The notes under the pieces were generated by a model. The model made no database searches and had not been told where the DNA came from. It saw only the letters and a list, made by a program, of their open reading frames with translations. A stretch of 64,000 nt of DNA from Caldifarciminota bacterium (GTDB lineage: Bacteria; Hydrothermota; Tepidihabitantia; SM23-42), in the NCBI GenBank assembly GCA_027026255.1, contig JALVOT010000009.1:27833-91832 (forward strand). Reading direction: 5' to 3'. The position numbers were made by a program, and so were the translations under genes. Position 1 is the first letter of the stretch, and each line of letters starts with the position of its first letter. Positions 31 to 49,165 of this stretch are shown here, piece by piece.

Positions 31-239
31 CCATTTTTACCGCATAAATAAAATACTTTGTCAAAGAACGATACAGTAAAAATATTTAATATTTTGCAAA
101 TTTTAGTCATTTCTTTTGAAAAGTCAATACATTCTTTGACCTTGCGGTTTCGTCTATCTTCTGATATTTTTACATCATCATAGGTCGACGAACAAATTTT
201 TTTTATATTTTGATACCCGCTATGCGCATAAATTTTCAT
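12..239 (-). CDS. Possible 75-aa leader ORF, unknown function
   Basis: ATG lies 5 nt downstream of the leader -10 box; the ORF ends inside the first repeat. Coding status unproven. Confidence 0.25.
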   Translation of the reverse strand: MKIYAHSGYQNIKKICSSTYDDVKISEDRRNRKVKECIDFSKEMTKICKILNIFTVSFFDKVFYLCGKNGLIVYL

Positions 240-296
240 ATTTTATTATACACATTTTAAATCGAATGTCAAGGCAAAATTTGCAAATTTTTGTAT
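31..296 (-). promoter_or_regulatory. CRISPR leader with strong promoter
   Basis: AT-rich region between cas2 and the first repeat. On the minus strand TTGACA (267-272), 16-nt spacer, TATAAT (245-250). Confidence 0.7.
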
Positions 297-566
297 TTAT
301 ATAATAGTTTCTTCCTTTCCTTTTTCAATACCCATCGTTTCCCTGGATGTATACATTTTTGTTCTGAAAATATAAAATACTACAGCATCTTTTTCTGTAT
401 CGATTATTTTCCCCATTTCAACTTTTAGCCTTTCAAATTTTGCTCGGGTAATCTCACCTTCAAAAACTGAATTTTGAATCCAGGTTAGGTATTTTCTTGC
501 CACCTTTAATGCCCTGGCTACCCTTTCCACCCCGACATCGTAAGTCATTATAACAAACATCACCAC
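297..566 (-). CDS. cas2: CRISPR-associated endonuclease Cas2
   Basis: 89 aa, MFVIMTYDVGVERVARALKVARKYLTWIQNSVFEGEIT is Cas2-like; adjacent to cas1. Confidence 0.95.
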   Translation of the reverse strand: MVMFVIMTYDVGVERVARALKVARKYLTWIQNSVFEGEITRAKFERLKVEMGKIIDTEKDAVVFYIFRTKMYTSRETMGIEKGKEETII

Positions 567-1564
567 CTCGCAACGAATGGCTCGTAGTTTTTCTCACCTA
601 ATAAATGCTTTTCAATCTTGTATGCCTCAAGATGTAGAAGAGAACGATACGAGACATTTCTTTTCAGGCTGGGATGTCTGATTGTTGTAGTCATTCGTTT
701 ATCAAATTCCTCAATAAATCGTCGTCTGCCGCTTTCTTTTAGAAAAATGCCATTGGCTTCTTCATAAAAATCATTTGTTTTAATCATATTTTTATTCACC
801 AGTGTAAAAATAATCCGGTCAATAATTATCGGTTTAAAAATCTCAGCAATATCAAGGTTTAAAGAAAATCTTCTGAAATTAGATGTATGTAAGAATCCTA
901 TTCTTGGATCAAGATGGGTCCTGTAAATTTCACTCAGGCAGGCTACATATAATAGACTATTCCCAAAACTAATCAGGGTATTCAATCGATTCTCAGGGGG
1001 ACGTCTGGTTCTGCTTTTGAATTCAAATTCCGGATTGGTGAAAATTTTATCAAAGACCTTATAATATTGTTCTCGGATATTGCCTTCAATCGCCATTAAC
1101 TTATCAGTGGTATTCTGGTTATGAATCAGCTCCGCCAGTTTTTCTATATCTTCAATAATACTCTGCAATGCGGCACCACGATTTAGATAATAATTTAATA
1201 CTCTTTTCATATTATCTACAGCACCCTTTACAAATCGCCGGGCAAGGTCGATTCTTCTTTCATCATCAAGATAAAATTCCGCCTGTTTCAAAATCATATG
1301 CCCGGAATTATAATGTTCTCTTGGATAGAATGTGCCGATATAATAGCCATAATGGTTGAAAAAGTGGATAATAATTTCTTTCTGACACAGAAATTCTAAA
1401 AGTTTCTTGTTGATTGTAATCTCACCCATAATAAGCATCTCTCTGGTATTCTCGACCGGAATATACTTTCGTCCCTTTTCACCTTCAAAATATAATGTAT
1501 TCTGCTTTCGATGCAGTTCACCATTGGAAAAGATATATAAAGTTTTTTTCATAACATCACGCAA
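560..1564 (-). CDS. cas1: CRISPR-associated endonuclease Cas1 (type I-B)
   Basis: KKTLYIFSNGELHRKQNTLYF...EGNIREQYY...RPPENRLNTLISFGNSLLY...GFLHTSNFRRFSLNLDIAEIFKP. True start probably the internal ATG (MKKTLYIF). Confidence 0.96.
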   Translation of the reverse strand: MRDVMKKTLYIFSNGELHRKQNTLYFEGEKGRKYIPVENTREMLIMGEITINKKLLEFLCQKEIIIHFFNHYGYYIGTFYPREHYNSGHMILKQAEFYLDDERRIDLARRFVKGAVDNMKRVLNYYLNRGAALQSIIEDIEKLAELIHNQNTTDKLMAIEGNIREQYYKVFDKIFTNPEFEFKSRTRRPPENRLNTLISFGNSLLYVACLSEIYRTHLDPRIGFLHTSNFRRFSLNLDIAEIFKPIIIDRIIFTLVNKNMIKTNDFYEEANGIFLKESGRRRFIEEFDKRMTTTIRHPSLKRNVSYRSLLHLEAYKIEKHLLGEKNYEPFVARW

Positions 1565-1674
1565 TATTTAATCGTAAAACCAATCATAATACTTAGATTT
1601 TCCACGCCATTCATCTTTGATTTTAAACCTGCCAAGTTTATATTTTCCATATCCTCTTCTTGGTTCCTACACCC

Positions 1675-1710
1675 ATTTTTGTATTTAGCCAATTGGCTAA
1701 ATACAAAAAT
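1675..1710. promoter_or_regulatory. 36-bp perfect palindrome, putative operator A
   Basis: ATTTTTGTATTTAGCCAA|TTGGCTAAATACAAAAAT. Confidence 0.6.
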
Positions 1711-1725
1711 ATAAAATACAGCAAA

Positions 1726-2034
1726 TTACAGTTTTTTGACACGAATACGCTGGACGAATTTCTCTAATTGATTAATTATCTCGATCACTGTTTGGTCTTT
1801 GAGCCAATAGATTCTTTTATTAACTTCCACCTCGTATCTGATTAAATCAATATTTCGTAAATCCCTTAAGACCCGTGAAATAGTGGGGACTGAAACGCCG
1901 ATTGCCCTGGCTAATTCAGAAGGGTTTCTTCTTTTATGAAAGAGCAACTTAACAGTTTTGTATGCCGTAGGGTTGCTTAATACACGACAAACCCGCGAGG
2001 CACGATATTCTGTTTCCGGCATTTTTTTTCTCAT
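1726..2034 (-). CDS. ArsR-like winged-helix transcriptional regulator
   Basis: RVLSNPTAYKTVKLLFHKRRNPSELARAIGVSVPTISRVLRDLRNIDLIRYEVEVNKRIYWL; SD GGAGG 7 nt before ATG. Confidence 0.8.
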   Translation of the reverse strand: MRKKMPETEYRASRVCRVLSNPTAYKTVKLLFHKRRNPSELARAIGVSVPTISRVLRDLRNIDLIRYEVEVNKRIYWLKDQTVIEIINQLEKFVQRIRVKKL

Positions 2035-2192
2035 TTAACCTCCGTATATTATTTTATAAAATATTCAGAATAAATCAACTGTTTTTTCTGAATCGAGGCT
2101 GAAGTTTTGTATGAATTTTTTGAAAAAATATATCAGAGATATTAAGGTGTGGGTCGCACAACTCAATATTTTTTCCAAAATAGAATATCTAT

Positions 2193-2311
2193 CATCCTGA
2201 CCCCCGCCGATTTTTATATTTAGCCAATTGGCTAAATATGAAAGTGAAAGGTTTATATTTTGAGTGCGGATATTGTATGGGATTGTTTGTAATACCGGCA
2301 GGGTCAGGATG
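2193..2311. repeat. 119-bp segment bounded by 11-bp perfect inverted repeats
   Basis: CATCCTGACCC (2193-2203) versus GGGTCAGGATG (2301-2311), with further imperfect GCCG/CGGC pairing inward. Confidence 0.5.
2216..2239. promoter_or_regulatory. 24-bp perfect palindrome, putative operator B
   Basis: ATATTTAGCCAA|TTGGCTAAATAT; shares the 22-bp core TATTTAGCCAATTGGCTAAATA with operator A. Confidence 0.6.
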
Positions 2312-2560
2312 GGTGGTTGATACTTGGGTTCGGTTCAGAAAACAGGGGATTGTTTAATATAAATACTTAAATATAAATAGAGGATAAGACTTGAAATTTG
2401 CTTTCGCCTCAGTCAGAATTGCTTAATGTAAATAGACGCCGGGATGAGTATCGACACCTGAACCAGTGGATATTTTTATTGCGGTATTTCAACCTAATCA
2501 AGAAACCCGGTGTTAATGCTGTAAACAAATGGATGTTTCTTAGTCAATTTTTTAATCATT

Positions 2561-3055
2561 CTATACCCAGCAGAATTCTTTATATGCACAGCGATTGCAG
2601 AATCCAATTTTCACAGGTTCTGGAGGTGTATCCTGTGAAATAATTTTTTGTATCGCTTCAAATGTTCTTTCCAGTTCATCCTCCAACTCCGGGGTCAGTT
2701 CCACAGGTATCCGCTTTTTCTCTTTGGGGATTAAGAGTTCACCGGTTGCCTTAATATTTATTTTTTTTAATTGATAAAGGTAAAAAGATAATTGCATTTT
2801 TGCTGATTGTAGATACCTGCTGGATTTTTTTACTTCAGCTACCAACAATTTTCCTTCTTTTTTACCGAAAATATCAATTTTCATCCCTGCTGTTTCAAAT
2901 TCTTTCTTTGCCCTCTGATATGATTCTTCATGTATCAATCTTCCCAATTCGATTAGTTGATTGTCCTGACTTGGATCAAGTTCATGTGCCATCAGCCAGA
3001 CCTCTCGCGGACAGATATAATAATACCAGATTAATGTTCCTGTGATTTTTTTCAT
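2561..3055 (-). CDS. cas4: CRISPR-associated exonuclease Cas4
   Basis: ITGTLIWYYYICPREVWLM...RLIHEESYQR...VAEVKKSSR...QLSFYLYQL...CNRCAYKEFCWV. Confidence 0.95.
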   Translation of the reverse strand: MKKITGTLIWYYYICPREVWLMAHELDPSQDNQLIELGRLIHEESYQRAKKEFETAGMKIDIFGKKEGKLLVAEVKKSSRYLQSAKMQLSFYLYQLKKINIKATGELLIPKEKKRIPVELTPELEDELERTFEAIQKIISQDTPPEPVKIGFCNRCAYKEFCWV

Positions 3056-3125
3056 TAAAACTTTAGCACTTCGGAATTCTGTGGTGAATCTAATTTTACA
3101 ATTGTTATCCAGTATTCGTAATAAA

Positions 3126-3965
3126 TTAAATGTTCTGCCATCTAAAAATCTGTTCTATGAGACGAGTCTTTTTAATTATTACATTTACATTAAATTCTCG
3201 CTCCATATCTCTTTCTATTTCAATCAGACCGAATCTATCCAAGAATCGTTCAATCACCCTGTAAAAATAACATTCCTGATATCTTTTTATATTATTCAAG
3301 AAGTCGATAATCAAACGGGGAAACGCACGGAGGTATTTATCTGAATAAAACTGAAATTTTCTCGATTCATTACCATATTTCTGAACAAGAAAGATGGTAA
3401 AACCAAATCTCTCCTGTATAATCGGGGAACTTGGATAGTAATCGAAATATTCCCAGTTACATTTTGTAGCAAAACTGACTAACATTGTTAAGTACAATTC
3501 AACAATTGAGTTCGATTTTAGATACCTAATTGCTTTCTTTGTTAGAGTCAGCTTGCCATATTTTTTTCTGGTTAAACCCGATACTCTGGTAATTATATTT
3601 ATTGTATGGATATGTGGACTGTCCAACTCAGTTTTAAGTGGAAATTGGTGCAAAAATATCCGTGTGAATCTGTCGTAGATACCTTCATCAATAAGCATCC
3701 GACAGAAAAATAGTGGGAGATTGCCTTTTTGTGTTAATTTTACTGGCTCCACTTTTTTTAGAATGGATAAATATTTAACTACATCTTTATAAAAGTGAAT
3801 ATCTTTAATTAATTGAGCATCGAACTTTTTATTTAACAACATCGGCGAATTGTTTTTATCGAAAGGATAACGCAGCAAATTAACCATTTCATTTGTTGTA
3901 AGCCCTTCAAAATTATCGCGTGGTATATTTGCTAACAGAAATCCAAGATAATCCATATCTAACAT
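3126..3965 (-). CDS. Uncharacterised protein encoded within the cas operon
   Basis: 279 aa; TLTKKAIRYLKS...KCNWEYFDYYPSSPIIQERFGFTIFLVQKYGNESRKFQFYSDKYLRAFP. The C-terminal pattern resembles a family of conserved hypothetical proteins, from memory. No Cas6 signature. Confidence 0.8.
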   Translation of the reverse strand: MLDMDYLGFLLANIPRDNFEGLTTNEMVNLLRYPFDKNNSPMLLNKKFDAQLIKDIHFYKDVVKYLSILKKVEPVKLTQKGNLPLFFCRMLIDEGIYDRFTRIFLHQFPLKTELDSPHIHTINIITRVSGLTRKKYGKLTLTKKAIRYLKSNSIVELYLTMLVSFATKCNWEYFDYYPSSPIIQERFGFTIFLVQKYGNESRKFQFYSDKYLRAFPRLIIDFLNNIKRYQECYFYRVIERFLDRFGLIEIERDMEREFNVNVIIKKTRLIEQIFRWQNI

Positions 3966-4119
3966 TTATCTATCATTTCTGTGGCTGACAGCTTTATTTT
4001 ATGAATTATAAAATACCCCAACCTCCTCCACCATAAATCAAACTTCATATATGTGGATAAGGTGATTGAGGGTGAAAATATCAGTAGGGTTATATACAAT
4101 TTAATTTCTGTTATGTTAT

Positions 4120-7177: not shown

Positions 7178-7181
7178 AGTC

Positions 7182-9932: not shown

Positions 9933-10173
9933 CTTTCTCCTCTCAATTTACACCCGTTTTCTTGAGACATTTTTATATAATCCATAATCTTTTTCCCATT
10001 TTTAAGTCTTCAGTTTATTTTTCTATCTTTCTCTCCTTACCATTTTCCAGATTTAAGACATTAATTCCCGTATTCGTATTAAGCGTTTACCAGATACCTG
10101 TGCCTGATATGCTTTAACCTAAGGCACCTTTTACTTAAAATTTCTCATCGTCCATTGTTATTACATCAGCCCT

Positions 10174-11653: not shown

Positions 11654-11845
11654 TTAAATGCGTTTGATTTTTCTCCATCCTATGTCCTTGATATACATTA
11701 TCTTATCATAATTCAGTTTTATGAGCGCACCGTTCAATAATTTCATTCTTAATGATTTATCGCTGCGATGGATGATTTCACCAATATAGACCTTACGGTC
11801 TAAAAGTTTTGTTTCATAGAGGAAGACCTTTTTTATTGCCGTCAT
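11654..11845 (-). CDS. Small conserved-looking protein, 63 aa
   Basis: TTGACA-N17-TATAAT promoter 7 nt upstream of ATG supports a real gene. Confidence 0.65.
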   Translation of the reverse strand: MTAIKKVFLYETKLLDRKVYIGEIIHRSDKSLRMKLLNGALIKLNYDKIMYIKDIGWRKIKRI

Positions 11846-12015
11846 TTACGCCATTATATACAATAGTTATCTGTTTGTCAAGGAAAATTGACCCTGGTTG
11901 TTTATGAAGTTCATAGTAAAACAGAGGGTTTTTAAAATCGACTGGTGCGGCTGTGAGGTTTGCTTATACAGTGCTGGTTGAAATCATAGACGGCCGATTA
12001 TCTTCCTGATGTTTT

Positions 12016-17829: not shown

Positions 17830-19056
17830 CTATCGGGATTTGTAGACCTCAAGACCCTTTTTTAACACCTCTAAGGCTTCAGCAAGTTGAGCTTTATTTA
17901 AGACATAGGCGATGCGCACTTCATCCGCACCTTTACCCGGGGTTGAGTAGAAGCCGTTCGCCGGTGCCAGCATAACCGTTTTGTTGTTGTAACTGAAATC
18001 GCTTAAGAGCCAGCGGCAAAAGTGGTCGGCGTCAGCAACCGGCAGCCGCAGGACGGTATAAAATGCACCTTCCGGCTTATGTCCATAAACACCAGGAATT
18101 TCTTTAATCTGCTCAAAGAGAAAATTTCTGCGTTCTTCATATTCCGCAATGATTGGTTTGATATATTCATCAATATGCTGGTATGCAGCTATTGCACCAA
18201 TCTGTTCCAGGGTTGGAGGACAGAGCCGTGCCTGACCGAATCTCAATAGGGCATTCATTATTTCCGGATTCCGTGAGACAAGACAGCCTACCCGGGCACC
18301 ACACGCTGAAAATCGTTTGGAAATAGAATCCATCAAGATGACCTGTTTTTCAATCTCCGGTAAAGAAAGGGCACTGATTTGAGATTTACCGTCATAGACA
18401 AATTCCCGATAGACCTCATCTGACAGGAGGAAGAGTTGATGCTGCTTGCAGAGTTTATAGATTATGAACATTTCCTCTTCAGTAAGCACCGTGCCGGTCG
18501 GGTTATTCGGTGTATTTATCAAAATTGCCTTTGTCCTCGGCGTAATCCGCTCTTCAATCTTCTGGGCCGAAGGCAGATGAAAACCGTGCTCAACATCTGT
18601 GGTTACCGGGACAAGTTTTACATTTGACATTACCGAAAATCCATTGTAATTTGTATAAAACGGTTCAAACACAAGAATTTCATCACCGGCATCACAGACC
18701 GCCATCATTGCGAATATAATCGCCTCACTACCACCGGTTGTAATCCAGACATTGTCCAGGTCTATATTAATACCCAGCTCACGATAATATTTAACCACCG
18801 CAAGCCTCAAGTCCAGAAGTCCGCCCGATGGTCCGTATCTGAGAACATCCTCTTTATAATCGGCAATCGCATCAAACAATTCTTTCGGCGTTTTGATATC
18901 AGGCTGTCCGATATTCAGGTGAAAAACCGTAATTCCCTTTTTCTTCGCCTCATCCGCAAGCGGGGCGAGTTTTCGAATTGGGGAATAGGGCATCTGCTCA
19001 GCCCGCTTTGACAAACTCCGCATTTTTGTTTTGCTAAATTGTTGTGCTGTTTCCAT
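17830..19056 (-). CDS. Pyridoxal-phosphate-dependent aminotransferase (class I/II)
   Basis: FHLNIGQPDIKTPKE...NTPNNPTGTVLTEEE...LLSDEVYREFVY...DSISKRFSACGARVGCL. Confidence 0.96.
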   Translation of the reverse strand: METAQQFSKTKMRSLSKRAEQMPYSPIRKLAPLADEAKKKGITVFHLNIGQPDIKTPKELFDAIADYKEDVLRYGPSGGLLDLRLAVVKYYRELGINIDLDNVWITTGGSEAIIFAMMAVCDAGDEILVFEPFYTNYNGFSVMSNVKLVPVTTDVEHGFHLPSAQKIEERITPRTKAILINTPNNPTGTVLTEEEMFIIYKLCKQHQLFLLSDEVYREFVYDGKSQISALSLPEIEKQVILMDSISKRFSACGARVGCLVSRNPEIMNALLRFGQARLCPPTLEQIGAIAAYQHIDEYIKPIIAEYEERRNFLFEQIKEIPGVYGHKPEGAFYTVLRLPVADADHFCRWLLSDFSYNNKTVMLAPANGFYSTPGKGADEVRIAYVLNKAQLAEALEVLKKGLEVYKSR

Positions 19057-19062
19057 AGTAAA

Positions 19063-19090
19063 ATTATATACATTTGAAAAAGAAAGTCAA
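19063..19090 (-). promoter_or_regulatory. Promoter for aminotransferase operon (predicted leaderless)
   Basis: TTGACT (19085-19090), N16, TATAAT (19063-19068), 6 nt, ATG. Confidence 0.75.
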
Positions 19091-31676: not shown

Positions 31677-33391
31677 TATTCCACCTTTGTTTCCCGAATT
31701 ACTTCTTCAATTGTTGTAACTCCCTGTTCTAATTTGTGTAATGCCGAATCCCTGAGGGTGAGCATCCCTTCTTCAACTGCGGCCTTTTCGATTTCTCCAG
31801 TCGGTGCCTTTTTAAGGATCAACTCACGAATGCGTGAGGTAACCAGCATCGTTTCAAAGACTCCGATTCTGCCTTTATATCCGGTCCCCCGACATTCATT
31901 ACAGCCTTCACCCTTAAATAAGGGGAAATTAATCTTTTCAGGGTCAAGCCCCGCATCCATCAATACCTCGGGAGGGTATTTCATTTCTTTTCGGCATTTA
32001 TTACAGATTTTCCGCAAAAGTCTCTGGGATTCTACCGCGAGCAGGGTTGAGGCGATCAAGAACGGTTCAACATCCATATTTACAAGTCGGGTGATGGTTG
32101 CAGCGGCGGAGTTTGTATGAACCGTGGATAAGACAAGGTGGCCGGTCAGAGAGGCGCGGATTGATATTTCCGCAGTCTCTAAATCCCGAATTTCACCGAC
32201 CATAATAATATTCGGGTCCTGACGCAGATAGGAACGGAGTGCAGAAGCAAATGTGAGTCCGATCTTTTCGTTCACCTGTAGTTGATTGATTCCCATCAAT
32301 GAATATTCAATCGGGTCCTCCGCGGTAATGATATTCAGACCGGGGTCGTTAAGTTCGGTGAGGGCGGAATAGAGGGTGGTGGTCTTTCCTGAACCGGTTG
32401 GCCCGGTAACAAGCACGATACCATAAGGGGTCTTTATCGCCCGACGGAAATTCTTCAGGGTTTCAGATTCAAATCCCAGGAGGTCAAGGTTTAACTGGAC
32501 TGTTGAACGGTCCAATATTCTCAAGGCAACCTTTTCGCCGAAGAGGGTGGGGACGGTTGATACACGAATATCAATAATTTTGTTATGAACCCGTGCCTTT
32601 ATCCTGCCGTCCTGGGGTAACCGTTTTTCCTCGACCTTGAGTTTAGCCATTACCTTTAAGACCGTGGCTAATGCCCGGTTCATTTTCTTCGGCGGTTTCA
32701 TTATTTCGTGAAGTATTCCGTCAATTCTGTAGCGCACCCTCATATCTTTTTCATAGGGTTCGATATGGACATCGGATACATTCAGATCAACCGCATCGGT
32801 GATTATTTTACTTGCCAGTTTTAAGGCAGGGCCACTATCCCGATTATCAACAACCTCAGAAAGGTCTTCTTCTCCCCTGCGTTCGCTGATATCGGGCTCA
32901 TCCATAACCTTTACTTTCTGCTCACCGGCTTCAGTCATTTCGATTTCATACATTACATCAGAGAGTAATTTCTGGATATTATAATGTTCCTGGATTATTT
33001 TAAGTATTGCTTCATCTGAGGCAACGACCGGTTCTATCTCAAAGCCGGTAGCAAACTGAATATCCTCGATCGCCGCCACATCTCCAGGATTGAGCATTGC
33101 CAGGGTAAGCTTTCGACCAAAACGCGAGACCGGAACCACAAGGTATTTTCCAGCAAGGTCAGACGGAATTAATTTTAATATTGAATCATCGATTTTTTTC
33201 CCTTTTAAATCAACTGCTTTTACACCAAAGTGTTTTGAAAGGGCCTTTAATAAATCTTCTTCTTTGATAAAACCCATACGGACCAGGGTCGCTCCAAGCT
33301 TGGTGCCGTCTTTTTTTTGTTCTTCTAAAGCCTGGGTAAGCATGTCTTCAGAAATCATTCCCTGTTTAATCAATATCTCACCTAACTTCAT
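31676..33391 (-). CDS. GspE/PilB-family assembly ATPase (copy 1)
   Basis: MKLGEILIKQGMISEDMLTQALEEQ; GPTGSGKTTTLYSAL; VGEIRDLETAEISIRASLTGHLVLSTVHTNS. Start reset to ATG 33391 downstream of TTGACA-N16-TATTAT. Confidence 0.95.
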   Translation of the reverse strand: MKLGEILIKQGMISEDMLTQALEEQKKDGTKLGATLVRMGFIKEEDLLKALSKHFGVKAVDLKGKKIDDSILKLIPSDLAGKYLVVPVSRFGRKLTLAMLNPGDVAAIEDIQFATGFEIEPVVASDEAILKIIQEHYNIQKLLSDVMYEIEMTEAGEQKVKVMDEPDISERRGEEDLSEVVDNRDSGPALKLASKIITDAVDLNVSDVHIEPYEKDMRVRYRIDGILHEIMKPPKKMNRALATVLKVMAKLKVEEKRLPQDGRIKARVHNKIIDIRVSTVPTLFGEKVALRILDRSTVQLNLDLLGFESETLKNFRRAIKTPYGIVLVTGPTGSGKTTTLYSALTELNDPGLNIITAEDPIEYSLMGINQLQVNEKIGLTFASALRSYLRQDPNIIMVGEIRDLETAEISIRASLTGHLVLSTVHTNSAAATITRLVNMDVEPFLIASTLLAVESQRLLRKICNKCRKEMKYPPEVLMDAGLDPEKINFPLFKGEGCNECRGTGYKGRIGVFETMLVTSRIRELILKKAPTGEIEKAAVEEGMLTLRDSALHKLEQGVTTIEEVIRETKVE

Positions 33392-33514
33392 AACAGTAAT
33401 ATAATACCAATAATTTTTCAATTGTCAAGAGGGAAGTTTTTTAAGCGTTACCCTGTCTGTATATATCTCGATTCAGCTATTGACTTATTGGTCAATATTT
33501 CTATAATGGAAGCG

Positions 33515-33883
33515 ATGATATCGATATTTTCGCTGCTTTTGCTGTCTGCCGGACCGGATACCGGTATCTTTGCTCCAGATACTACTATCTCAAATGACAG
33601 CCTCAGGATAAAAAAGGTGATTTACCGGGACCCCTGGATTTCTCCGGATAAGTTTCTGCACTTTTCCGCCTGTACGGCGATTCCCGGTCTTACCTACCAT
33701 CTTTATGTCTGTCGTTTAAAAAGGGATGAACACTTAGGCCGTGTCTATGCGGTTTCCCTTACTGCAGTCATCGGTCTGGGTAAGGAACTTTACGACAAAA
33801 AAAGAAAAGGTCAGTTTTCCTGGCGCGACCTCTGCTGGGATGGCCTGGGACTCCTGGCCGGCTATTTTATCTTTATCTATTAA
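33515..33883 (+). CDS. YfiM/DUF2279-like small (lipo)protein
   Basis: PDKFLHFSACTAIPGLTYHLY...VSLTAVIGLGKELYDKKRKGQFSWRDLCWDGLG. Start MISIFSLLLL chosen from promoter TTGACT-N16-TATAAT, 7 nt upstream. Confidence 0.75.
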   Translation: MISIFSLLLLSAGPDTGIFAPDTTISNDSLRIKKVIYRDPWISPDKFLHFSACTAIPGLTYHLYVCRLKRDEHLGRVYAVSLTAVIGLGKELYDKKRKGQFSWRDLCWDGLGLLAGYFIFIY

Positions 33884-36741: not shown

Positions 36742-37905
36742 TTATTTATAAAGCAGATACCGCTTTCTTATTTTCTTGAAATGATTAAGTCCGGACAGCC
36801 ACCGCTTTTTTATACGGCAGACCGGTTCACCCTTTGTCAACGAATTTCTAATCCAATCATTTCCAATCAGGATATCAAACGGCATTTTCTCCTTTTCGAA
36901 TTCATAGGGTGGTAAACGCCATTGAAATGTTTCTGGATATAATCTTTTTATTGTCCTTATCACTTCAAGACCGAGCAGCAGTGGATTAAAGATTTTTTTA
37001 TTTTCAATATAGACCTGTGCTCCACCGCACAACTGGCCCTTATATTTATTGAATGTCGGGATGAAACAGAGCGGTCTGAATACTACACCCTTGATATTTT
37101 CTTTATGCAATGCCTTACAGAGCTCCGCCGGGTCAATATAAGGGGCACCGAAGATTTCAAAGGGCCGGGTTGTCCCCCTGCCTTCTGAGATATTTGTCCC
37201 TTCCAACAGGCACATCCCGGGATAGACGAGTGCTGTATCAAATGCGGGCATATTGGGTGACGGAGGAACCCATTTGAGTCCGCTCTGGGAAAAGTCGTTT
37301 TTTCTCTTCCAGCCGTTAAGTTTAATAATTCTGATATCGGCATCAATCTTATATTCAGTATTAATCAAGATGCATGCCTCTCCAATGGTCATAGCATGGC
37401 GCACAGGTAGAGGATATAATCCAACAAAAGAAGAAAATCGCTTATCCAGGACCGGTCCCTGAACCGCAGTACCGTTTAAGGGATTGGGCCGGTCAAGAAT
37501 ATAGACCGGTTTCTTTATTTTTGCACATTCCTTTATCAAAATCATTGCCGACCATAAAAATGTATAATACCTTGTTCCAATGTCGATGAGGTCAATAACC
37601 ACGGTATCAATATTGGATAAAATTTCTGGTTTGGGAGCCAGGGTTCTGCCGTAAAGACTGGATATGAGAATTTTTTTGCGGGGGTGAATGAAATCATAAG
37701 CCCTTTTTTGGTCCTGAAGGGCGGAGAATAATCCGTGTTCCGGTGCGAATATTACATTGAGTTTACAGTATCGCTGCGCCAAAAATATATCGATGGTGGG
37801 TATAAGTTTGCGATTACAGGAAGCGATATTCGCCAGCAGACCGATCCGCTGTCCGCGCAGTTTTTTAAAATGTGTGCGCACCAGCCTATCTATCCCCAAT
37901 TCCAT
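36742..37905 (-). CDS. DUF1343 protein (NamZ-like exo-beta-N-acetylmuramidase)
   Basis: MELGIDRL...LRGQRIGLLANIAS...FAPEHGLFSALQD...DIGTRYYTFLWSAMILI...ILDRPNPLNGTAVQGPVLD...LLEGTNISEGRGTTRPFEIFGAP. Start reset to 37905. Confidence 0.93.
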   Translation of the reverse strand: MELGIDRLVRTHFKKLRGQRIGLLANIASCNRKLIPTIDIFLAQRYCKLNVIFAPEHGLFSALQDQKRAYDFIHPRKKILISSLYGRTLAPKPEILSNIDTVVIDLIDIGTRYYTFLWSAMILIKECAKIKKPVYILDRPNPLNGTAVQGPVLDKRFSSFVGLYPLPVRHAMTIGEACILINTEYKIDADIRIIKLNGWKRKNDFSQSGLKWVPPSPNMPAFDTALVYPGMCLLEGTNISEGRGTTRPFEIFGAPYIDPAELCKALHKENIKGVVFRPLCFIPTFNKYKGQLCGGAQVYIENKKIFNPLLLGLEVIRTIKRLYPETFQWRLPPYEFEKEKMPFDILIGNDWIRNSLTKGEPVCRIKKRWLSGLNHFKKIRKRYLLYK

Positions 37906-37910
37906 AATAA

Positions 37911-37938
37911 AATATAACGCAAAAACCGATGATGTCAA
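37911..37938 (-). promoter_or_regulatory. Promoter for DUF1343 operon (predicted leaderless)
   Basis: TTGACA (37933-37938), N16, TATATT (37911-37916), 5 nt, ATG. Confidence 0.75.
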
Positions 37939-38021: not shown

Positions 38022-38049
38022 TTGACTTGGTTTGATTTTTTTGTAGAAT
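38022..38049 (+). promoter_or_regulatory. Promoter for BFD-lipB-lipA operon (predicted leaderless)
   Basis: TTGACT (38022-38027), N16, TAGAAT (38044-38049), 5 nt, ATG. Confidence 0.75.
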
Positions 38050-38054
38050 AGGGT

Positions 38055-38309
38055 ATGAAGATTGTCTGTCGGTGTGAGGACAGAACCGAAGAGGAGATCA
38101 TCCAGAAGATTAAACAGGGCTATAAGACAATGGATGATCTGAAACGGATTATTCGGGTGACAATGGGCCGTTGTCAGGGACGGGGATGTCGTCGAATCAT
38201 CGCCCGAATCCTTGCCCGGGAACTGGGCGTGCCCGTTGAGGCGATAAAACAGCCCACATTTCGGCCGCCTACAAAGCCGGTGCCGATCAGTGCAGCCGAA
38301 GAGAAATAA
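38055..38309 (+). CDS. BFD-like [2Fe-2S] protein
   Basis: KIVCRCEDRTEEEIIQKIKQGYKTMDDLKRIIRVTMGRCQGRGCRR. Confidence 0.85.
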   Translation: MKIVCRCEDRTEEEIIQKIKQGYKTMDDLKRIIRVTMGRCQGRGCRRIIARILARELGVPVEAIKQPTFRPPTKPVPISAAEEK

Positions 38310-39839: not shown

Positions 39840-39841
39840 TT

Positions 39842-40639: not shown

Positions 40640-40663
40640 CGGTTTCCCGGTCGTATTCGGTCG

Positions 40664-41725: not shown

Positions 41726-42179
41726 AATCTTTCAACCGATCCCGGATTCGGGCTGCCTCTTCATAGGCTTCCTGTTCCAGTGCCTTTTTCAATTCTTTAC
41801 GCAGCCAGTAGATTTCAATGCTCCGTTTCCTTCCTGATGCAGATTTTCTTCCGATATGTTTATCACTGTGGTGAATCTTCTTAATCAATTCTTTGATATG
41901 CGGGTCAAATGCATTTATACAGTGACTGCATCCAAATCTTCCACTCCTTTTGAATTCGGCAAGGGAGAGGTAGCAGACCGGACATATAATCTCGGCATCC
42001 CGGGCATCTTTTTCCTTGAGCAGTTTATGCATAACCTCCAGGGGCGACATCTTTTTGGTCGAAATGAGCCCCCTCTTTGCTGCACACTGCTCACAGAGGT
42101 GCAGTTCCACGGTTCGGTCCGGCAGGACCTCTTTAAAGAAGATCGTTGCCGGATGCTTTTTGCAATCATCACAGAGCAT
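41703..42179 (-). CDS. mcsA: McsA-like zinc-binding UVR-motif protein
   Basis: MLCDDCKKHPATIFFKE...LCEQCA...CPVC...CSHC; UVR motif WLRKELKKALEQEAYEEAARIRDRLKD. Confidence 0.93.
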   Translation of the reverse strand: MLCDDCKKHPATIFFKEVLPDRTVELHLCEQCAAKRGLISTKKMSPLEVMHKLLKEKDARDAEIICPVCYLSLAEFKRSGRFGCSHCINAFDPHIKELIKKIHHSDKHIGRKSASGRKRSIEIYWLRKELKKALEQEAYEEAARIRDRLKDYGVEDIG

Positions 42180-42846: not shown

Positions 42847-44038
42847 TTCTTAAGGCGTCAACGGTAAAGAGCCGGGTCGCCCTTTTGGCTGGATAGATGG
42901 TAGCCAGGAATGTTATTATGATTGCAGCTAAGGCGGTTATCATAAAATCGCCTGCCGACATCTCAACCGGCAGGGTTTCGATAAAATAGATATCACCGGG
43001 CAGGGTTATCTGATAATTGTCAAGTGCAGTGCAGGCAAGAAATGCAAATAAAAGGCCGAGGATTGTCCCCATAATTCCAATCATAGTTCCGTGGTAGATG
43101 AATATCTTCATAATACGCGATGAGGTGAATCCAAAAGAGCGGAGAATGCCGATCTCCTTTGTCTTTTTCTTCACCATATTGACCAAGGTGCCGACGATAT
43201 TGAATCCTGCGACCACGATAATCAGGGTTAAGACGATGAATGTAATGATTTTTTCCATCTTCAAGGCAGCAAATATTGCATGATTTGATTCTATCCAGTT
43301 CTGGGCACGATACGGGTAACCTAATTCCTTTTCAATTTTTTTTGAATATCTCGGCACATTATAGATATCCGAGACCTTTATCTCAATTCCACTGACCTGT
43401 CCCTTCATTCTGAAAAGAGACTGGACATCTTTTAAATCCATATAGACCATTGTGGCATCATAGTCATAATAACCGAGATTGAAGATCCCCTTTAAAAGAA
43501 TCTTTTTTGCCCGGGGTAAAAATCCCGGTTGTTCTCCAAAGGGCAGGGCGATGATTAATGTATCACCGACCTGAGCCTGAAGGGTTCGTGCCAGTTCGAC
43601 TCCAATCACACAACCCTGGTTCAGGTCAAAACTGCCTTCCTGAATCTTTACCGGCACATCGGTTATCTTTTTTTCCTGATCGGCAATGACCCCTTTGATA
43701 ATTATCCCGTCCATCCGTTCTTTATTTTTGATTATAGATTTTTGAATCATAAATGGGGCAGAGGCCTTGATAAAAGAGAATTTCTTCAGCTTCTTTTCAA
43801 TGTCCCGGTATTTTACCAGGGGCTCATTAAAGTATCGGCGCACTATAATGTGCGGGGTTCCGGCCAGAATGCGGCGTTTCAATTCATTCTGAAAACCGTT
43901 CATCATTGAAAGGGCAATCAGGATTGCGGCGACACCGACAAAGACGCCGCCGATGGCGATGGTTGTGGAGAGCGAAAAGAACTTTCGATTTCTGGATAAA
44001 AGATACCTGCGGGCAATGTAGTATTCGGTGTTCATCAA
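42839..44038 (-). CDS. Lipoprotein-releasing ABC permease, LolC/LolE-like
   Basis: IARRYLLSRNRKFFSLSTTIAIGGVFVGVAAILIALSMMNGFQNELKRRILAGTPHI. Confidence 0.95.
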   Translation of the reverse strand: MMNTEYYIARRYLLSRNRKFFSLSTTIAIGGVFVGVAAILIALSMMNGFQNELKRRILAGTPHIIVRRYFNEPLVKYRDIEKKLKKFSFIKASAPFMIQKSIIKNKERMDGIIIKGVIADQEKKITDVPVKIQEGSFDLNQGCVIGVELARTLQAQVGDTLIIALPFGEQPGFLPRAKKILLKGIFNLGYYDYDATMVYMDLKDVQSLFRMKGQVSGIEIKVSDIYNVPRYSKKIEKELGYPYRAQNWIESNHAIFAALKMEKIITFIVLTLIIVVAGFNIVGTLVNMVKKKTKEIGILRSFGFTSSRIMKIFIYHGTMIGIMGTILGLLFAFLACTALDNYQITLPGDIYFIETLPVEMSAGDFMITALAAIIITFLATIYPAKRATRLFTVDALRNE

Positions 44039-45459
44039 TCCTTTCTTAACTGGGGGAAGAGGATGACATCACGGATTGATGGTTGTCCAAACAGGACCAT
44101 ACAGAGTCGGTCGATGCCGATTCCCAGTCCGCCGGTGGGCGGCATTCCATATTCTAATGCCTCGATGAAGTCTTCGTCGATTTCCCTGATTCCCTCTTCA
44201 TGCTGGGCAAGTTGTGCCTCAAATCTGCGCCGCTGTTCAATCGGGTTATTCAATTCTGAAAATGCATTGGCAAGTTCCAGACCGAATATTACCAGTTCAA
44301 ACCTTTCTACAAGTCGCTTGTCTTTGCGGTGCTCCTTGGCCAGGGGTGAAATCAATTTTGGATAATCAGTGATAAATGTCGGTTCAATAATCTCTTTCTG
44401 GACCAGCGCGCTGAAGATTTTGTCAATCTTACTGCCCGGTGATAGCCCCTTGTAGTCAATTTTTAATTCCTTACACAAATTGTCAATCTGTTCTGGAGAG
44501 GCATTTAGTATATCAAAACCAACTTTTTTGTTCAGCGTATCTATGTAACTTATCCTTTTAAACGGTTTTTTTATCTCGGTTTCATTATCGCCAAATTTTA
44601 TTGTTGATGAAGCAAGGAGGTTATCAACGAGGAACTGAAACAGTTCCTCGACCAGTTCCATCATTCCTTCATAGTCGGTATATGCCTCATAGGCCTCAAT
44701 CATTGTGAATTCCGGATTGTGGAATCGGTCCAGTCCTTCATTGCGGAAATCCCGACAGATTTCATAGACCTTTTCATACCCGCCGACAATGAGTCTTTTG
44801 AGATAAAGTTCATCAGCAATTCTCAGATACATCTCCTGTTGTAAGGCATTGTAGAATGTTTTGAATGGTTGTGCGGCTGCGCCGCCATAGATGGGTTGTA
44901 AAATCGGGGTTTCCACCTCTAAAAAACCCTTCTGATTCAAAAATTGCCGTATGAAATTTACCAGGGCGGTCCGTTTTTTGAAGAATTCCCGCACCTCGGG
45001 ATTGGCAATGAGGTCAAGATAGCGTTTGCGATATTTGAGTTCAATATCCTTTAATCCGTGCCATTTTTCCGGTAAGGGTCGGAGCGATTTTGAGAGCATC
45101 GAAAACTCATCCACGAGGACGGTAATCTCTCCGGTGCGGGTCTTAAAGACCGTGCCTTTGATACCGATAAAATCGCCGAGGTCAAAAAGTTTAAATAATT
45201 CAAATTTTTCATTCAATCGGTCCCGGCGCAGATATATCTGGAGCTGGGTGTTTTCATCACTCAGGGTGGCGAATGCCGTCTTGCCGTGACCCCGGATGGT
45301 GAGGATTCGTCCTGCGGTTGTGACTACGGTTTCACTCTGATTCAGTTTTTCAAAGTTTTCTTTGATTTCAGAAAAATTATGGGTCTTCTCAAATTTATAG
45401 GGGTAGGGATTGATTCCCTTTTCCCTTAAATCTTTCAGTTTGCGCAATCTCTCTTCCAT
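44035..45459 (-). CDS. lysS: Lysyl-tRNA synthetase (class II)
   Basis: MEERLRKLKDLREKGINPYPYKF...RKRYLDLIANPEVREFFKKR...FRNEGLDRFHNPEFTMIEAYEAYTDY...GLGIGIDRL. Start reset to 45459. Confidence 0.97.
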   Translation of the reverse strand: MEERLRKLKDLREKGINPYPYKFEKTHNFSEIKENFEKLNQSETVVTTAGRILTIRGHGKTAFATLSDENTQLQIYLRRDRLNEKFELFKLFDLGDFIGIKGTVFKTRTGEITVLVDEFSMLSKSLRPLPEKWHGLKDIELKYRKRYLDLIANPEVREFFKKRTALVNFIRQFLNQKGFLEVETPILQPIYGGAAAQPFKTFYNALQQEMYLRIADELYLKRLIVGGYEKVYEICRDFRNEGLDRFHNPEFTMIEAYEAYTDYEGMMELVEELFQFLVDNLLASSTIKFGDNETEIKKPFKRISYIDTLNKKVGFDILNASPEQIDNLCKELKIDYKGLSPGSKIDKIFSALVQKEIIEPTFITDYPKLISPLAKEHRKDKRLVERFELVIFGLELANAFSELNNPIEQRRRFEAQLAQHEEGIREIDEDFIEALEYGMPPTGGLGIGIDRLCMVLFGQPSIRDVILFPQLRKD

Positions 45460-45465
45460 ATTGAG

Positions 45466-45494
45466 ATGATACACAAAAATAGATAAAAAGTCAA
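45466..45494 (-). promoter_or_regulatory. Promoter for lysS operon (predicted leaderless)
   Basis: TTGACT (45489-45494), N17, TATCAT (45466-45471), 6 nt, ATG. Confidence 0.7.
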
Positions 45495-45686
45495 GTTTTG
45501 TCTGCTGAGTTGTGGAAAAAAGACCTGACTTTTTGCTTTTCTCGGCTATTATCATTTAATGCCAAACAAGAGGAAAACCTTGCCGGGTGATAGATGTATT
45601 CTGAGATATTGGCGGCGAATTGAGAGAAGAGATAGACAGAAAATTTTCTCGACTCAGATAAAAATGCAGATTTTAAGTGATTACAT

Positions 45687-46775
45687 TTAATGAATCAAAA
45701 GGCTGAAACCGGCACCGGCCAAGATTAATAGAATCGGTTCAATACGGAAAAAGATAAGCAAGAGCAGGGCGCCGATTCCAAATAGAGCGTAGTAGATATT
45801 GGTCCAGTTTGTCAGGATGAACAAAATCCCGGTGGAGAGCAGCACGGCAACCACGGCCGATTTTATGCCGTTAAAAAAAGATGTTACATAGGGATTTTTA
45901 TTTATCTTCTTATAGAGCTTTGCCAGCAGCACGAGCATAATAAATGAAGGCAGGAATATGCCGATTGTTGCAATCAGGGCGCCGAAAACGCCCATCACCT
46001 TGAAGCCAACGAATGTTGCGGTAATTGCAATCGGTCCTGGAGTCATCTGGCCTAATGCTACACCATCAAGAAATTCCTCAGGACTGAGCCAGGACCTTAT
46101 GGTGCATACTTCATTTTTTATAAAGGGGATGGCGGCATATCCGCCCCCAAATATCACCGCACCAATCTTTAAAAATATTGCAAAAAGTTCTAACGCCTTT
46201 TTAAGGTCGAATATCAATAGAGGGATTGATAAGAATAAGGGATTGAATAGTTTTATGTTATCGAGCAAGACCATAAAGCCTCCGCACACCAGGACGGTAA
46301 GCACGGGGTCGAATTTTAAAAGAAAAAGGATGAAGGCAATACCAAAAACTATAAAACCCTTTACACCCTTAAGCAGCACCCTGCCCATATCATAAGCTGC
46401 CCAGAGGATGATTGCGGTCATTACGGCGCCGATTCCCCTGAAGATTAAATCTACCCCGGGCAGGCTGTGATAGTTCAGATAGAACCAGGAGAGGAGTATC
46501 ATTAATAGAAAAGATGGTAATAATAGAGACGCCCCGGCAACAGCCGCTCCCTTAAAGCCGAACAGGTGATAGCCGATGTATTCACAGTAGTTCGGCACAA
46601 ACGGCCCGGGCAGCATCTGTCCCATCGCCACCGCATTGGCAAGTTCTTTATCATCGATGAATCTTTTCTTTTTTACACATTCATTACGCAGGATTGCAAG
46701 CATACCAAGACCACCGCCAAAACCAAAGATGCCTATCTTCAAGAGGCTCAGGGAAAGTTTTTTTAATGATTTCAT
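45687..46775 (-). CDS. chrA: ChrA-family chromate transporter (two-domain)
   Basis: GIFGFGGGLGMLAILRNECVKKKRFIDDKELANAVAMGQMLPGPFVPNYCEYIGY...ALGQMTPGPIAITATFVG. Confidence 0.95.
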   Translation of the reverse strand: MKSLKKLSLSLLKIGIFGFGGGLGMLAILRNECVKKKRFIDDKELANAVAMGQMLPGPFVPNYCEYIGYHLFGFKGAAVAGASLLLPSFLLMILLSWFYLNYHSLPGVDLIFRGIGAVMTAIILWAAYDMGRVLLKGVKGFIVFGIAFILFLLKFDPVLTVLVCGGFMVLLDNIKLFNPLFLSIPLLIFDLKKALELFAIFLKIGAVIFGGGYAAIPFIKNEVCTIRSWLSPEEFLDGVALGQMTPGPIAITATFVGFKVMGVFGALIATIGIFLPSFIMLVLLAKLYKKINKNPYVTSFFNGIKSAVVAVLLSTGILFILTNWTNIYYALFGIGALLLLIFFRIEPILLILAGAGFSLLIH

Positions 46776-47569
46776 CAGGGGTTGAGACTTCCGCTCCGGT
46801 AACCGGCCAGGTCAAGGGTTGTAAATCGATAGCCCAATCTTTTAAAGTAACGGATAATCCGTTTGCGGAATTTTATGAATTTCATCGCCTGTGTCATATC
46901 GATTTCAATTCGGGCTAATGGATAATGGTCTCGCACCCGGAGTGGTCCAGAAATAAATTTTCTCAGATACCTTTCGGCAAGGGCAACCCGCTGTAAATTT
47001 TCTTTATTGATTTTTGTGCCGTAAGGGATACGCGAAGCAAGGCAGGCCATTGAAGGCTGATTCCAGTTAGGGAGTTTGAGCCTTTTCGCCAATTTTTTTA
47101 TTTCACTTTTTTTGAGCCCGGCCGTAATAAGCGGGGAATCAATTTTTAGTTTGTGCAGCGCCTTGATGCCGGGCCGGTAATCCTTAAGGTCGTCTCTATT
47201 ACTTCCTTCAATAACCGAATAACCATATCGCCGGGCGATTGCCTTGAGTTTTTTGAAGCGCTGCAATTTACAATAGTAGCAGCGCAGGACAGTATTATTG
47301 GAAAAATTTTTATCAGCCAATTCATTGGTCCTGATGATGATGTGCCGGCATTTCAGGGCGCGGGCAATCTTTTTTGAGAGTCTTGTCTCTTCTTCAGAAT
47401 AGGTTTCAGAGCGGACGGTAACTGCAATTACCTTTTTTTTCAGGACCTCCTTTGCCGCCCATAAAAGCAGACTTGAGTCAACCCCTCCTGAGAATGCTAC
47501 AACAACTCCGGGGTAGTTCTTAAGGATTGCTTTTAATTTCTTTAATTTAGTTAAAGGCGCTGATGCCAA
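46775..47569 (-). CDS. larE: ATP-dependent sacrificial sulfur transferase LarE-like
   Basis: VVVAFSGGVDSSLLLWAAKEVL...RCYYCKLQRFKKLK...EGSNRDDLKDYRPG...PSMACLASRIPYG. Confidence 0.92.
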   Translation of the reverse strand: MASAPLTKLKKLKAILKNYPGVVVAFSGGVDSSLLLWAAKEVLKKKVIAVTVRSETYSEEETRLSKKIARALKCRHIIIRTNELADKNFSNNTVLRCYYCKLQRFKKLKAIARRYGYSVIEGSNRDDLKDYRPGIKALHKLKIDSPLITAGLKKSEIKKLAKRLKLPNWNQPSMACLASRIPYGTKINKENLQRVALAERYLRKFISGPLRVRDHYPLARIEIDMTQAMKFIKFRKRIIRYFKRLGYRFTTLDLAGYRSGSLNP

Positions 47570-47836
47570 CTATGCAAGATAGGGGAGGAACTCTTTGCTG
47601 ATCGGGGGGGTTCTAACCCAGCGGGCCAGTTCTTTGTCTTCATCAAAGATAATTACCGTAGGGATATCACTGACTTCATGCATCGCCCCTTCGCTGAGAC
47701 CATCCACGGTTTCCATATCAAAATATTGAATCTCGGCGTCAAATTTTTCCTTTTCTTTAAAATAGTGAATCTTTTTCTGGGTCTCTTTGCAGACTGGACA
47801 GTCAGGCTTGCCAAAGATGTAAATCTTTTTCATCAT
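47570..47836 (-). CDS. Thioredoxin/glutaredoxin-fold protein (CPVC motif)
   Basis: KIYIFGKPDCPVCKETQKKIHYFKE...DIPTVIIFDEDKELARW; SD AGGAGG. Confidence 0.85.
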   Translation of the reverse strand: MMKKIYIFGKPDCPVCKETQKKIHYFKEKEKFDAEIQYFDMETVDGLSEGAMHEVSDIPTVIIFDEDKELARWVRTPPISKEFLPYLA

Positions 47837-47998
47837 ACCTCCTTGGATAATTTTAATCCAAATAAGAAAAAAATCAAGACCCTATGGTGTGAACTCCTCG
47901 TTTGTTCCGATTAAAGTCCGAATGTGTTTGACACATAGTTAAGCATTAGATAAATCAGCAAATTATTGACGCCGGGCGAAAAAGGTATAAAATGGTCT

Positions 47999-49165
47999 AT
48001 GGCAAAGAAAGAAATTCATCCCTTGATCGACAAAGAAAAGCAGAGGATTGCAAAAAGATATCGCAATGATAACTTAAGAGTATCAATTATTTCTTATATC
48101 ATCAGTGCGATATTTATCTTTGTGCTGATCTATTTTGATATTTCACAAAGATTCAGTATGTATCTTGGTTCTATTTTCGGGCCCAGGGTCTTAATCATAT
48201 TTTTCTATTTTTTAGTTCTGTTTTTGGTTTATTCAATAATTACCTTTCCTTTATCTTATATACAGGGATATGTGTTCGAACATAAATATAATTTCTCGAC
48301 CCAGAATTTTAAAGCCTGGTTTATTGACTGGTTAAAATCACTTGCTGTCTCTTTTTTACTCAGTTTAATAATTGTTGAATTCATTTATTTTATCATTTCC
48401 GCCGCCGGGGGTTTGTGGTGGTTCTGGCTTGCCGTTGTTATGATAATCTTTAGTGTAATTATTGCAAATCTCTTTCCGATTTTGATACTTCCTCTCTTTT
48501 ATAAGACATCGCAAATTACCGATGAAGAGCTTATTGATGAAATTTACAGCCTCGGCAAAAAGGCGAAATTAGAAATCAGGGGACTATATTCCATTAATTT
48601 AAGTAATAAGACGAAAAAGGCGAATGCCGCAGTCGTCGGGCTGGGTAATACAAAGAGGATTCTTCTGGGTGATAATCTTCTTAATAAGTTTGAAGATGAT
48701 GAGATTCTTTGCGCCCTCGCTCATGAAATCACCCATTATCAGGAGCATCATATCTGGTGGCTGATTATCTGGCAATCCGTGATTAGCCTTTTTCTGTTTT
48801 TCATATTTTCTAAAATCAGCCCGGTCATTTATTCCTGGGCGGGATTTAACGATATATCTGAGCCTGGTGCATTCCCACTATTTATTGCAATATTTCTCTT
48901 TCTCTCCCTCTTAATTAAACCCATAGGCTCGGCAATTTCACGATATTATGAACGCCGTGCTGATCTGGGTGCACTGCATCTTACCAATAACCCGGACGCA
49001 TTTATTCGACTTATTGCAAAATTTTGCAATGAACAACTCAGTATCGCCTATCCCAATAGGTTGGTTGAATGGTATTCTTATTCCCATCCTTCACCCGGTA
49101 AGAGAATTTCATTTGCCGAAGCCTGGAAAAAAAATTCTTTGCATAAAGGTGTTGACTTTTTTTAA
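47999..49165 (+). CDS. M48-family (Ste24-like) metalloprotease
   Basis: ALAHEITHYQEHHIWW; SRYYERRADLGALHLT; start reset to MAKKEIHPLID. Confidence 0.93.
   Translation: MAKKEIHPLIDKEKQRIAKRYRNDNLRVSIISYIISAIFIFVLIYFDISQRFSMYLGSIFGPRVLIIFFYFLVLFLVYSIITFPLSYIQGYVFEHKYNFSTQNFKAWFIDWLKSLAVSFLLSLIIVEFIYFIISAAGGLWWFWLAVVMIIFSVIIANLFPILILPLFYKTSQITDEELIDEIYSLGKKAKLEIRGLYSINLSNKTKKANAAVVGLGNTKRILLGDNLLNKFEDDEILCALAHEITHYQEHHIWWLIIWQSVISLFLFFIFSKISPVIYSWAGFNDISEPGAFPLFIAIFLFLSLLIKPIGSAISRYYERRADLGALHLTNNPDAFIRLIAKFCNEQLSIAYPNRLVEWYSYSHPSPGKRISFAEAWKKNSLHKGVDFF

What the first reader, a model, noticed from the sequence alone, without database searches (positions are those of the whole stretch)
239..48001. 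Recurrent leaderless-mRNA architecture: near-consensus promoters whose -10 box ends 5-9 nt before the ATG of operon-first genes
Read directly from sequence. Gene start: -35, spacer, -10, gap to ATG. 239(-): TTGACA,16,TATAAT,5. 11845(-): TTGACA,17,TATAAT,7. 19056(-): TTGACT,16,TATAAT,6. 33391(-): TTGACA,16,TATTAT,9. 33515(+): TTGACT,16,TATAAT,7. 37905(-): TTGACA,16,TATATT,5. 38055(+): TTGACT,16,TAGAAT,5. 45459(-): TTGACT,17,TATCAT,6. A weaker case is 47999(+): TATAAA,7. Bacterial transcription normally starts about 6-9 nt after the -10, so these mRNAs should begin at or next to AUG with no SD. In contrast rpsH, rplF, tldD, cas8b, the HTH gene and the 47836 gene have SDs. This suggests two initiation modes, leaderless for many operon-first genes and SD for others, and it corrects several start codons.
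Basis: partly seen in the sequence, partly recalled or inferred. Interest (0 to 1): 0.8.

Follow-up and report, generated by a model that had tools for sequence, protein, structure and literature searches.

The report
Leaderless genes in uncultured WOR-3 bacteria
In this uncultured WOR-3 bacterium about a quarter of the genes that head a transcription unit have a textbook promoter placed so close to the start codon that the messenger RNA should begin at the start codon itself, with no ribosome-binding leader; this is a known bacterial strategy, here found for a phylum in which I could find no report of it.

Summary
All nine listed promoters are present essentially as described. In 1.41 Mb of the host genome (WOR-3/Stahlbacteria), with starts called blind to any motif, 117 of 467 operon-first genes have a TTGACA/TATAAT promoter ending 5-9 nt before the start, against 1.4 in shuffled sequence and 6 of 671 operon-internal genes. 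The -35 sits almost always at spacer 16. Two classes separate: box at 5-9 nt, no SD (9%); box at 17-22 nt, SD in 97%. The 16S anti-SD is intact. Relatives show the same. In 21 sequences of the 19056 gene from its order the promoter moves together with the ATG although the N-terminus varies by 11 codons; in two other families of the class the gene has an SD instead. Leaderless transcription beside SD initiation is the best reading; no TSS has been mapped. Corrections: '239(-)' is most likely the CRISPR leader promoter, not a gene start; GTG also serves as a leaderless start. Known kind (Actinobacteria, Deinococcus-Thermus, others); no paper found for WOR-3.

The parts
11845..11881 (-). Leaderless-type promoter: -35 11876-11881 TTGACA, -10 11853-11858 TATAAT, gap 7, ATG at 11845 of a 63-aa ORF (11654-11845), no Pfam hit
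19054..19090 (-). Leaderless-type promoter: -35 19085-19090 TTGACT, -10 19063-19068 TATAAT, gap 6, ATG at 19056 of a class I/II aminotransferase
   Evidence: 21 sequences (own plus 20 relatives) keep promoter-to-ATG spacing 5-7 while the N-terminal length varies
33389..33428 (-). Leaderless-type promoter: -35 33423-33428 TTGACA, -10 33401-33406 TATTAT, gap 9 (or TATATT, gap 6), ATG at 33391 of pilB (T2SSE/MshEN)
   Evidence: 12 of 14 WOR-3 pilB loci keep it within about 5-11 nt
33480..33517 (+). Leaderless-type promoter: -35 33480-33485 TTGACT, -10 33502-33507 TATAAT, gap 7, ATG at 33515 of a 122-aa ORF without Pfam hit; the upstream ATG at 33506 overlaps the -10 box and cannot be the start of this transcript
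37903..37938 (-). Leaderless-type promoter: -35 37933-37938 TTGACA, -10 37911-37916 TATATT, gap 5, ATG at 37905 of a NamZ exo-N-acetylmuramidase gene
   Evidence: 21 of 22 readable sequences (own included) keep gap 4-7, 8 ATG and 13 GTG starts
38022..38057 (+). Leaderless-type promoter: -35 38022-38027 TTGACT, -10 38044-38049 TAGAAT, gap 5, ATG at 38055 of a BFD-like [2Fe-2S] protein
45457..45494 (-). Leaderless-type promoter: -35 45489-45494 TTGACT, -10 45466-45471 TATCAT, gap 6, ATG at 45459 of a class II (D/K/N type) aminoacyl-tRNA synthetase gene
   Evidence: no relative matches the first 15 residues of the longer ORF from 45555, so 45459 is the better start
47966..48001 (+). Leaderless-type promoter: -35 47966-47971 TTGACG, -10 47988-47993 TAAAAT, gap 5, ATG at 47999 of an M48 CAAX-type protease gene
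245..272 (-). Consensus promoter (-35 267-272 TTGACA, -10 245-250 TATAAT) that faces a large CRISPR array beyond the left end of the window: probable CRISPR leader promoter, not a gene start
49222..49239 (+). Contrast case: SD gaggagg before rpsH ATG 49237
49620..49636 (+). Contrast case: SD aaggaggt before rplF ATG 49634

Best explanation
The primary sigma factor's RNA polymerase recognises a near-consensus TTGACA-16-TATAAT promoter. Where the -10 box ends 5-9 nt before the start codon, transcription starts at or within about 3 nt of the first base of the start codon, and the mRNA is leaderless. Such mRNAs have no SD, and the 5'-terminal start codon itself must recruit the ribosome. Where the box lies 14 nt or more upstream, the leader holds an SD and initiation is conventional. 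Promoter-to-start distance thus goes with the translation mode, and about 25-29% of operon-first genes (about 10% of all called genes) use the leaderless mode. Shown: the promoters, their spacing, their restriction to operon-first genes, the switch in SD presence with distance, the intact anti-SD, conservation across the order. Inferred: the exact start of transcription and the way the ribosome engages these mRNAs.
For: Motif-blind starts: 117/467 operon-first genes versus 1.4 +/- 1.1 shuffled and 6/671 internal; 137/467 if in-frame starts within 90 nt are allowed, 20 of them only at another start, versus 0-6 shuffled. Of 128 genes with a -10 (at most 1 mismatch) at gap 5-9, 102 have TTGACA (at most 1 mismatch) at spacer 16/17; the spacer scan gives 93 at 16, 9 at 17 and 0-3 elsewhere. 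SD (4 or more nt) by promoter gap: 0-9 nt, at most 9%; 10-13, 27%; 14-16, 89%; 17-22, 97%; leaderless-type versus distant-promoter genes P = 3e-30. Pyrimidine at -1 in 64% of leaderless-type starts versus 31% internal, as expected of a YR start site. Three relatives of the same class repeat the pattern: 28/161, 19/118 and 33/170 versus 0.1-0.4 shuffled. The same pipeline on 200 kb of E. coli: 0/103. Reciprocal best hits: leaderless stays leaderless in 7/12 and 6/10 pairs at about 58% identity. Aminotransferase, NamZ and pilB orthologues keep the spacing; in the aminotransferase the promoter is displaced together with the start. 36% of exact consensus promoters in the genome (101/281) have an ATG 5-7 nt downstream; about 5% would be expected by chance (3 positions, about 1 in 60 each; my estimate).
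Against: I have no TSS map, RNA-seq or proteomics for this MAG, so a leader of 1-4 nt cannot be told from zero. SD absence at gap 5-9 is partly forced, since the -10 hexamer occupies the place of the SD, so it is not fully independent evidence. The first 45 nt of leaderless-type ORFs are not less structured than others, so no compensating feature was found. Function of the promoters is by consensus only.
Confidence: 0.93

Rival explanations
1. The AT-rich hexamer just upstream of the ATG is a non-canonical AT-rich ribosome-binding signal, as described for Bacteroidetes/FCB genomes, not a promoter.
For: WOR-3 is often placed near the FCB group (my own knowledge); AT-rich non-SD signals are reported there (PMC9581028).
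Against: The box comes with TTGACA at a fixed 16-bp spacing in 80% of cases, and it is almost absent before operon-internal genes, which need an RBS but no promoter. The genome uses ordinary SDs elsewhere and the anti-SD is intact.
Confidence: 0.02
2. The starts are called wrongly: the true starts lie further downstream with an SD, and the transcripts are ordinary leadered mRNAs.
For: Three starts in the window differ between methods.
Against: A downstream in-frame start with SD of 5 or more nt within 75 nt occurs in 12% of leaderless-type genes, no more than in internal genes (13%) and less than in the SD class (25%). Alignments with orthologues begin within the first five residues in 90% of leaderless-type genes in two relatives. 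Orthologues keep the promoter tied to the ATG.
Confidence: 0.03
3. Very short leaders (about 2-8 nt) without SD rather than strictly leaderless mRNAs, at least for the larger gaps (8-9 nt; pilB).
For: 24 of 117 cases have gap 8-9; several pilB orthologues have gap 10-11, one 12-14.
Against: 76 of 117 have gap 5-6, where the usual start site falls on the first base of the start codon; a density trough between gaps 10 and 16 argues against selection for short leaders.
Confidence: 0.15
4. Chance or base composition: promoters are common in AT-rich intergenic DNA and sometimes fall near an ATG.
For: The genome is 41-42% GC and promoters are numerous.
Against: Dinucleotide shuffles, internal genes, 3381 non-start intergenic ATGs (125 hits at gap 5-9, 3.7% versus 29.6%), reversed patterns and E. 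coli all give background values.
Confidence: 0.005

Closest known systems
Leaderless (TA-led) genes of Deinococcus-Thermus (PMC12340547, PMC3160421)
   Same: -10 box directly before the ORF, no SD, a large minority of genes, SD genes in the same genome, misannotated starts
   Different: There the motif is a weak TANNNT that can work without a -35; here both hexamers are near consensus at a nearly fixed 16-bp spacer
Leaderless transcriptome of Actinobacteria / Mycobacterium (PMC3160421, PMC3898074, PMC4633059)
   Same: Leaderless genes beside SD-led genes in one genome
   Different: There supported by TSS mapping and ribosome profiling; here sequence evidence only, in a mid-GC, uncultured phylum
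Sigma-70-type promoters (TTGACA/TATAAT)
   Same: Same hexamers
   Different: Preferred spacer 16 here, not the 17 of E. coli (my own knowledge for E. coli)
AT-rich non-canonical RBS of the FCB group (PMC9581028)
   Same: AT-rich signal near the start codon in mid/low-GC genomes
   Different: Not before internal genes here, and coupled to a -35

Membership tests
Bacterial leaderless (TA-led) genes as defined by Zheng et al. 2011 | TANNNT-like signal about 10-12 bp upstream of the start, more often than in dinucleotide shuffles | tested here: met
Bacterial leaderless (TA-led) genes as defined by Zheng et al. 2011 | No SD before these genes | tested here: met
   SD of 4 or more nt in 9% versus 82% of genes with distant promoters; partly forced by overlap of the positions
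Bacterial leaderless (TA-led) genes as defined by Zheng et al. 2011 | Signal belongs to heads of transcription units, not to operon-internal genes | tested here: met
   6/671 internal genes
Bacterial leaderless (TA-led) genes as defined by Zheng et al. 2011 | Transcript 5' end at the start codon | not testable with these tools
   no TSS data; pyrimidine at -1 is enriched
Bacterial leaderless (TA-led) genes as defined by Zheng et al. 2011 | Translation of the leaderless mRNA in vivo | not testable with these tools
   uncultured MAG
Sigma-70-type promoter | TTGACA and TATAAT at 16-18 bp | tested here: met
AT-rich RBS of the FCB type | Signal before operon-internal genes as well | tested here: not met
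AT-rich RBS of the FCB type | SD largely absent from the genome | tested here: not met
   SD enriched before internal and leadered genes; 16S ends in ACCTCCTTTC

The most novel reading that the evidence does not exclude
In this WOR-3 order promoter placement works as a two-state code: a rigid 16-bp-spacer promoter either abuts the start codon (leaderless) or lies far enough away to leave room for an SD, with few intermediates, and orthologous genes have flipped between the states at order boundaries. This would give an evolutionary system for measuring how genes switch translation initiation mode, and possibly a ribosome adapted to leaderless mRNAs beside a full-length S1, IF3 and anti-SD.
Probability: 0.35. 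Interest if true: 0.6.

Novelty: new member of a known kind. Interest (0 to 1): 0.45.

Why it matters
It adds a candidate phylum, known to me only from metagenomes, to the groups with large-scale leaderless expression. It means that start codons and N-termini of WOR-3 proteins called by SD-based gene finders are often suspect, and it offers a set of orthologues that switch between leaderless and SD initiation. The cleanly separated classes make the minimum leader for SD use (about 7-8 nt after the expected start site) readable from sequence.

Tried and rejected
Chance/AT-richness, AT-rich RBS and wrong-start readings were tested and rejected. A structure signal in the first 45 nt was looked for and not found. 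The 239(-) entry was rejected as a gene start: it faces a CRISPR array. Whole-genome pattern counts for E. coli were not possible, so 200 kb served as control. Rfam and tRNA scans of the window found nothing. I did not test functional enrichment of leaderless genes. Only one FCB and two Omnitrophota genomes were compared outside the phylum (0-2 hits each), so absence there is not established for those groups.
Full report
Where it is. The window is part of a 2.10-Mb, 99%-complete genome in 18 contigs. Its pilB is 76-84% identical to records titled candidate division WOR-3 or Stahlbacteria. I took 1.41 Mb of it and called genes with my own dicodon-based finder, which uses no upstream motif when choosing starts (1230 genes, 90% coding).

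The observation. For 47999 a TTGACG-16-TAAAAT-5 reading is better. The contrast genes have SDs. Product names come from Pfam: aminotransferase (19056), PilB-type ATPase (33391), NamZ muramidase (37905), BFD ferredoxin-like (38055), class II D/K/N aminoacyl-tRNA synthetase (45459), M48 CAAX protease (47999).

One entry falls. The 239(-) ORF is 75 aa, has no Pfam hit and is not called as coding. To its left, across a run of Ns in the assembly, lies a CRISPR array of at least 70 repeats (GTTTCAATTCCTCATAGGTAGACTATTAAT, period about 66 nt), and to its right are cas genes, with cas1 at 560-1552. The reverse complement of the repeat ends in ATTGAAAC, a typical crRNA handle for type I-B (my own knowledge), so the array should be read on the minus strand, the direction in which this promoter points. 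It is most likely the CRISPR leader promoter.

More than chance. Among 467 operon-first genes, promoters with at most two mismatches in the two hexamers end 5-9 nt before the start 121 times (117 genes); shuffles give 1.4 +/- 1.2 and 671 internal genes give 6. Intergenic ATGs that are not starts: 125 hits at gap 5-9 among 3381 with a looser criterion, 3.7% against 29.6%. Positions 5 and 6 dominate. Allowing other in-frame starts within 90 nt raises the count to 137 (29%), with 0-6 in shuffles.

Why a promoter. When a -10 is present at gap 5-9, TTGACA stands at spacer 16 or 17 in 80% of genes; the scan over spacers 10-25 gives 93 at 16, 9 at 17 and 0-3 at any other. Operon-internal genes, which need a ribosome signal but no promoter, lack the pair. 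This separates it from the AT-rich RBS of the FCB group.

Two classes. SD frequency as a function of promoter gap rises from at most 9% (0-9 nt) through 27% (10-13) to 89% (14-16) and 97% (17-22). With transcription starting about 7 nt after the -10, the switch falls where the leader first becomes long enough to hold an SD. Caveat: at gaps 5-9 the hexamer covers the SD position, so absence there is partly forced. Promoter density falls between the classes (24 per position at 5-9, 3.1 at 10-16, 5.7 at 17-26). The 16S rRNA ends in ACCTCCTTTC; a six-repeat S1 and IF3 are present, so ordinary SD initiation should be intact. Leaderless-type starts are 111 ATG and 6 GTG, no TTG. T or C at -1 is enriched (64% versus 31% for internal genes), as expected of a start site on the A or G of the start codon.

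Relatives. The same pipeline gives 28/161, 19/118 and 33/170 operon-first genes in one family member, one order member and one class member; shuffles 0.1-0.4. E. coli, 200 kb: 0/103. The exact pattern TTGAC-N17-TATAAT-N(5-7)-ATG has 101 hits here, 63-115 in the sampled genomes of the same order, 2-63 in other families of the class, and 0-27 in other classes of the phylum; the reversed control gives 0-1. Consensus promoters themselves follow a similar gradient (281 here, 183-371 in the order, a few to some tens in most other classes), so the drop in other classes reflects promoter consensus as well as leaderless use.

Orthologues. The aminotransferase (19056) has TTGAC(T/A)-16-TATA(A/C)T-(5 to 7)-ATG in 21 sequences from the order (own plus 20 relatives), while the start shifts over 11 codons relative to the conserved part of the protein: promoter and start codon move as one unit. 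In families f3 and f4 of the class the same gene has a strong SD and no adjacent promoter. NamZ (37905): 21 of 22 readable sequences keep gap 4-7, 13 with GTG and 8 with ATG. pilB: 12 of 14 WOR-3 loci keep it within about 5-11 nt. Reciprocal best hits: 7/12 and 6/10 leaderless-type genes stay so at about 58% protein identity.

Wrong starts do not explain it: downstream in-frame starts with an SD are no commoner than in internal genes, and alignments begin at the first residues.

What is known. Leaderless genes in bacteria were surveyed by Zheng et al. 2011: 207 of 953 genomes, around 20% of genes in Actinobacteria and around 40% in Deinococcus-Thermus, recognised by the same TANNNT signal (PMC3160421). 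A 2025 paper verified the -10-adjacent-ORF pattern in Deinococcus by mutation (PMC12340547). A GeneMarkS-2 survey predicted leaderless transcription in 21.6% of bacterial species (cited in PMC9581028). No paper in the library holds both 'leaderless' and 'WOR-3', or 'Stahlbacteria' and 'promoter'; most subscription papers are not covered. So this is a new member of a known kind, with a notably strict bipartite promoter.

What is shown and what is inferred. Shown: promoter pairs, spacing, enrichment, class separation, conservation. Inferred: the TSS at the start codon, and translation of leaderless mRNA.

Noticed in passing
window 1-566 and L089:3000-7735 (contig C9 left of the window): CRISPR array of at least 70 repeats beside a type I cas operon (Cas1, Cas3, TM1802/Cas8-like); the consensus promoter at 245-272(-) is probably its leader promoter. 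The window begins right after a run of Ns in the assembly next to the array.
   Followed up: partly
whole genome G000 and its order: Promoter spacer is nearly fixed at 16 bp in both leaderless and leadered promoters (100/117 and 92/106), with T-rich positions 4-6 nt upstream of the -10.
   Followed up: partly
WOR-3 phylum genomes: The number of exact consensus promoters falls from 183-371 per genome in the own order to a few or some tens in most other classes of the phylum, which suggests different promoter preferences there.
   Followed up: no
window 47833-47836(-): The SD aaggaggt abuts the ATG at 47836; the next ATG at 47833 is better spaced and is the likelier start.
   Followed up: no
L183-L201 (NamZ orthologues): GTG start in 13 of 21 leaderless-type orthologues: GTG appears to be freely used as a leaderless start in this gene.
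   Followed up: partly
L089:9504-9540 and 10039-10075 (window about 1672-1708 and 2207-2243): Two 89% identical copies of a 37-nt palindromic sequence (TATTTAGCCAATTGGCTAAATA) flank the ArsR-type HTH gene at 1726-2034: probable operators of that regulator.
   Followed up: no
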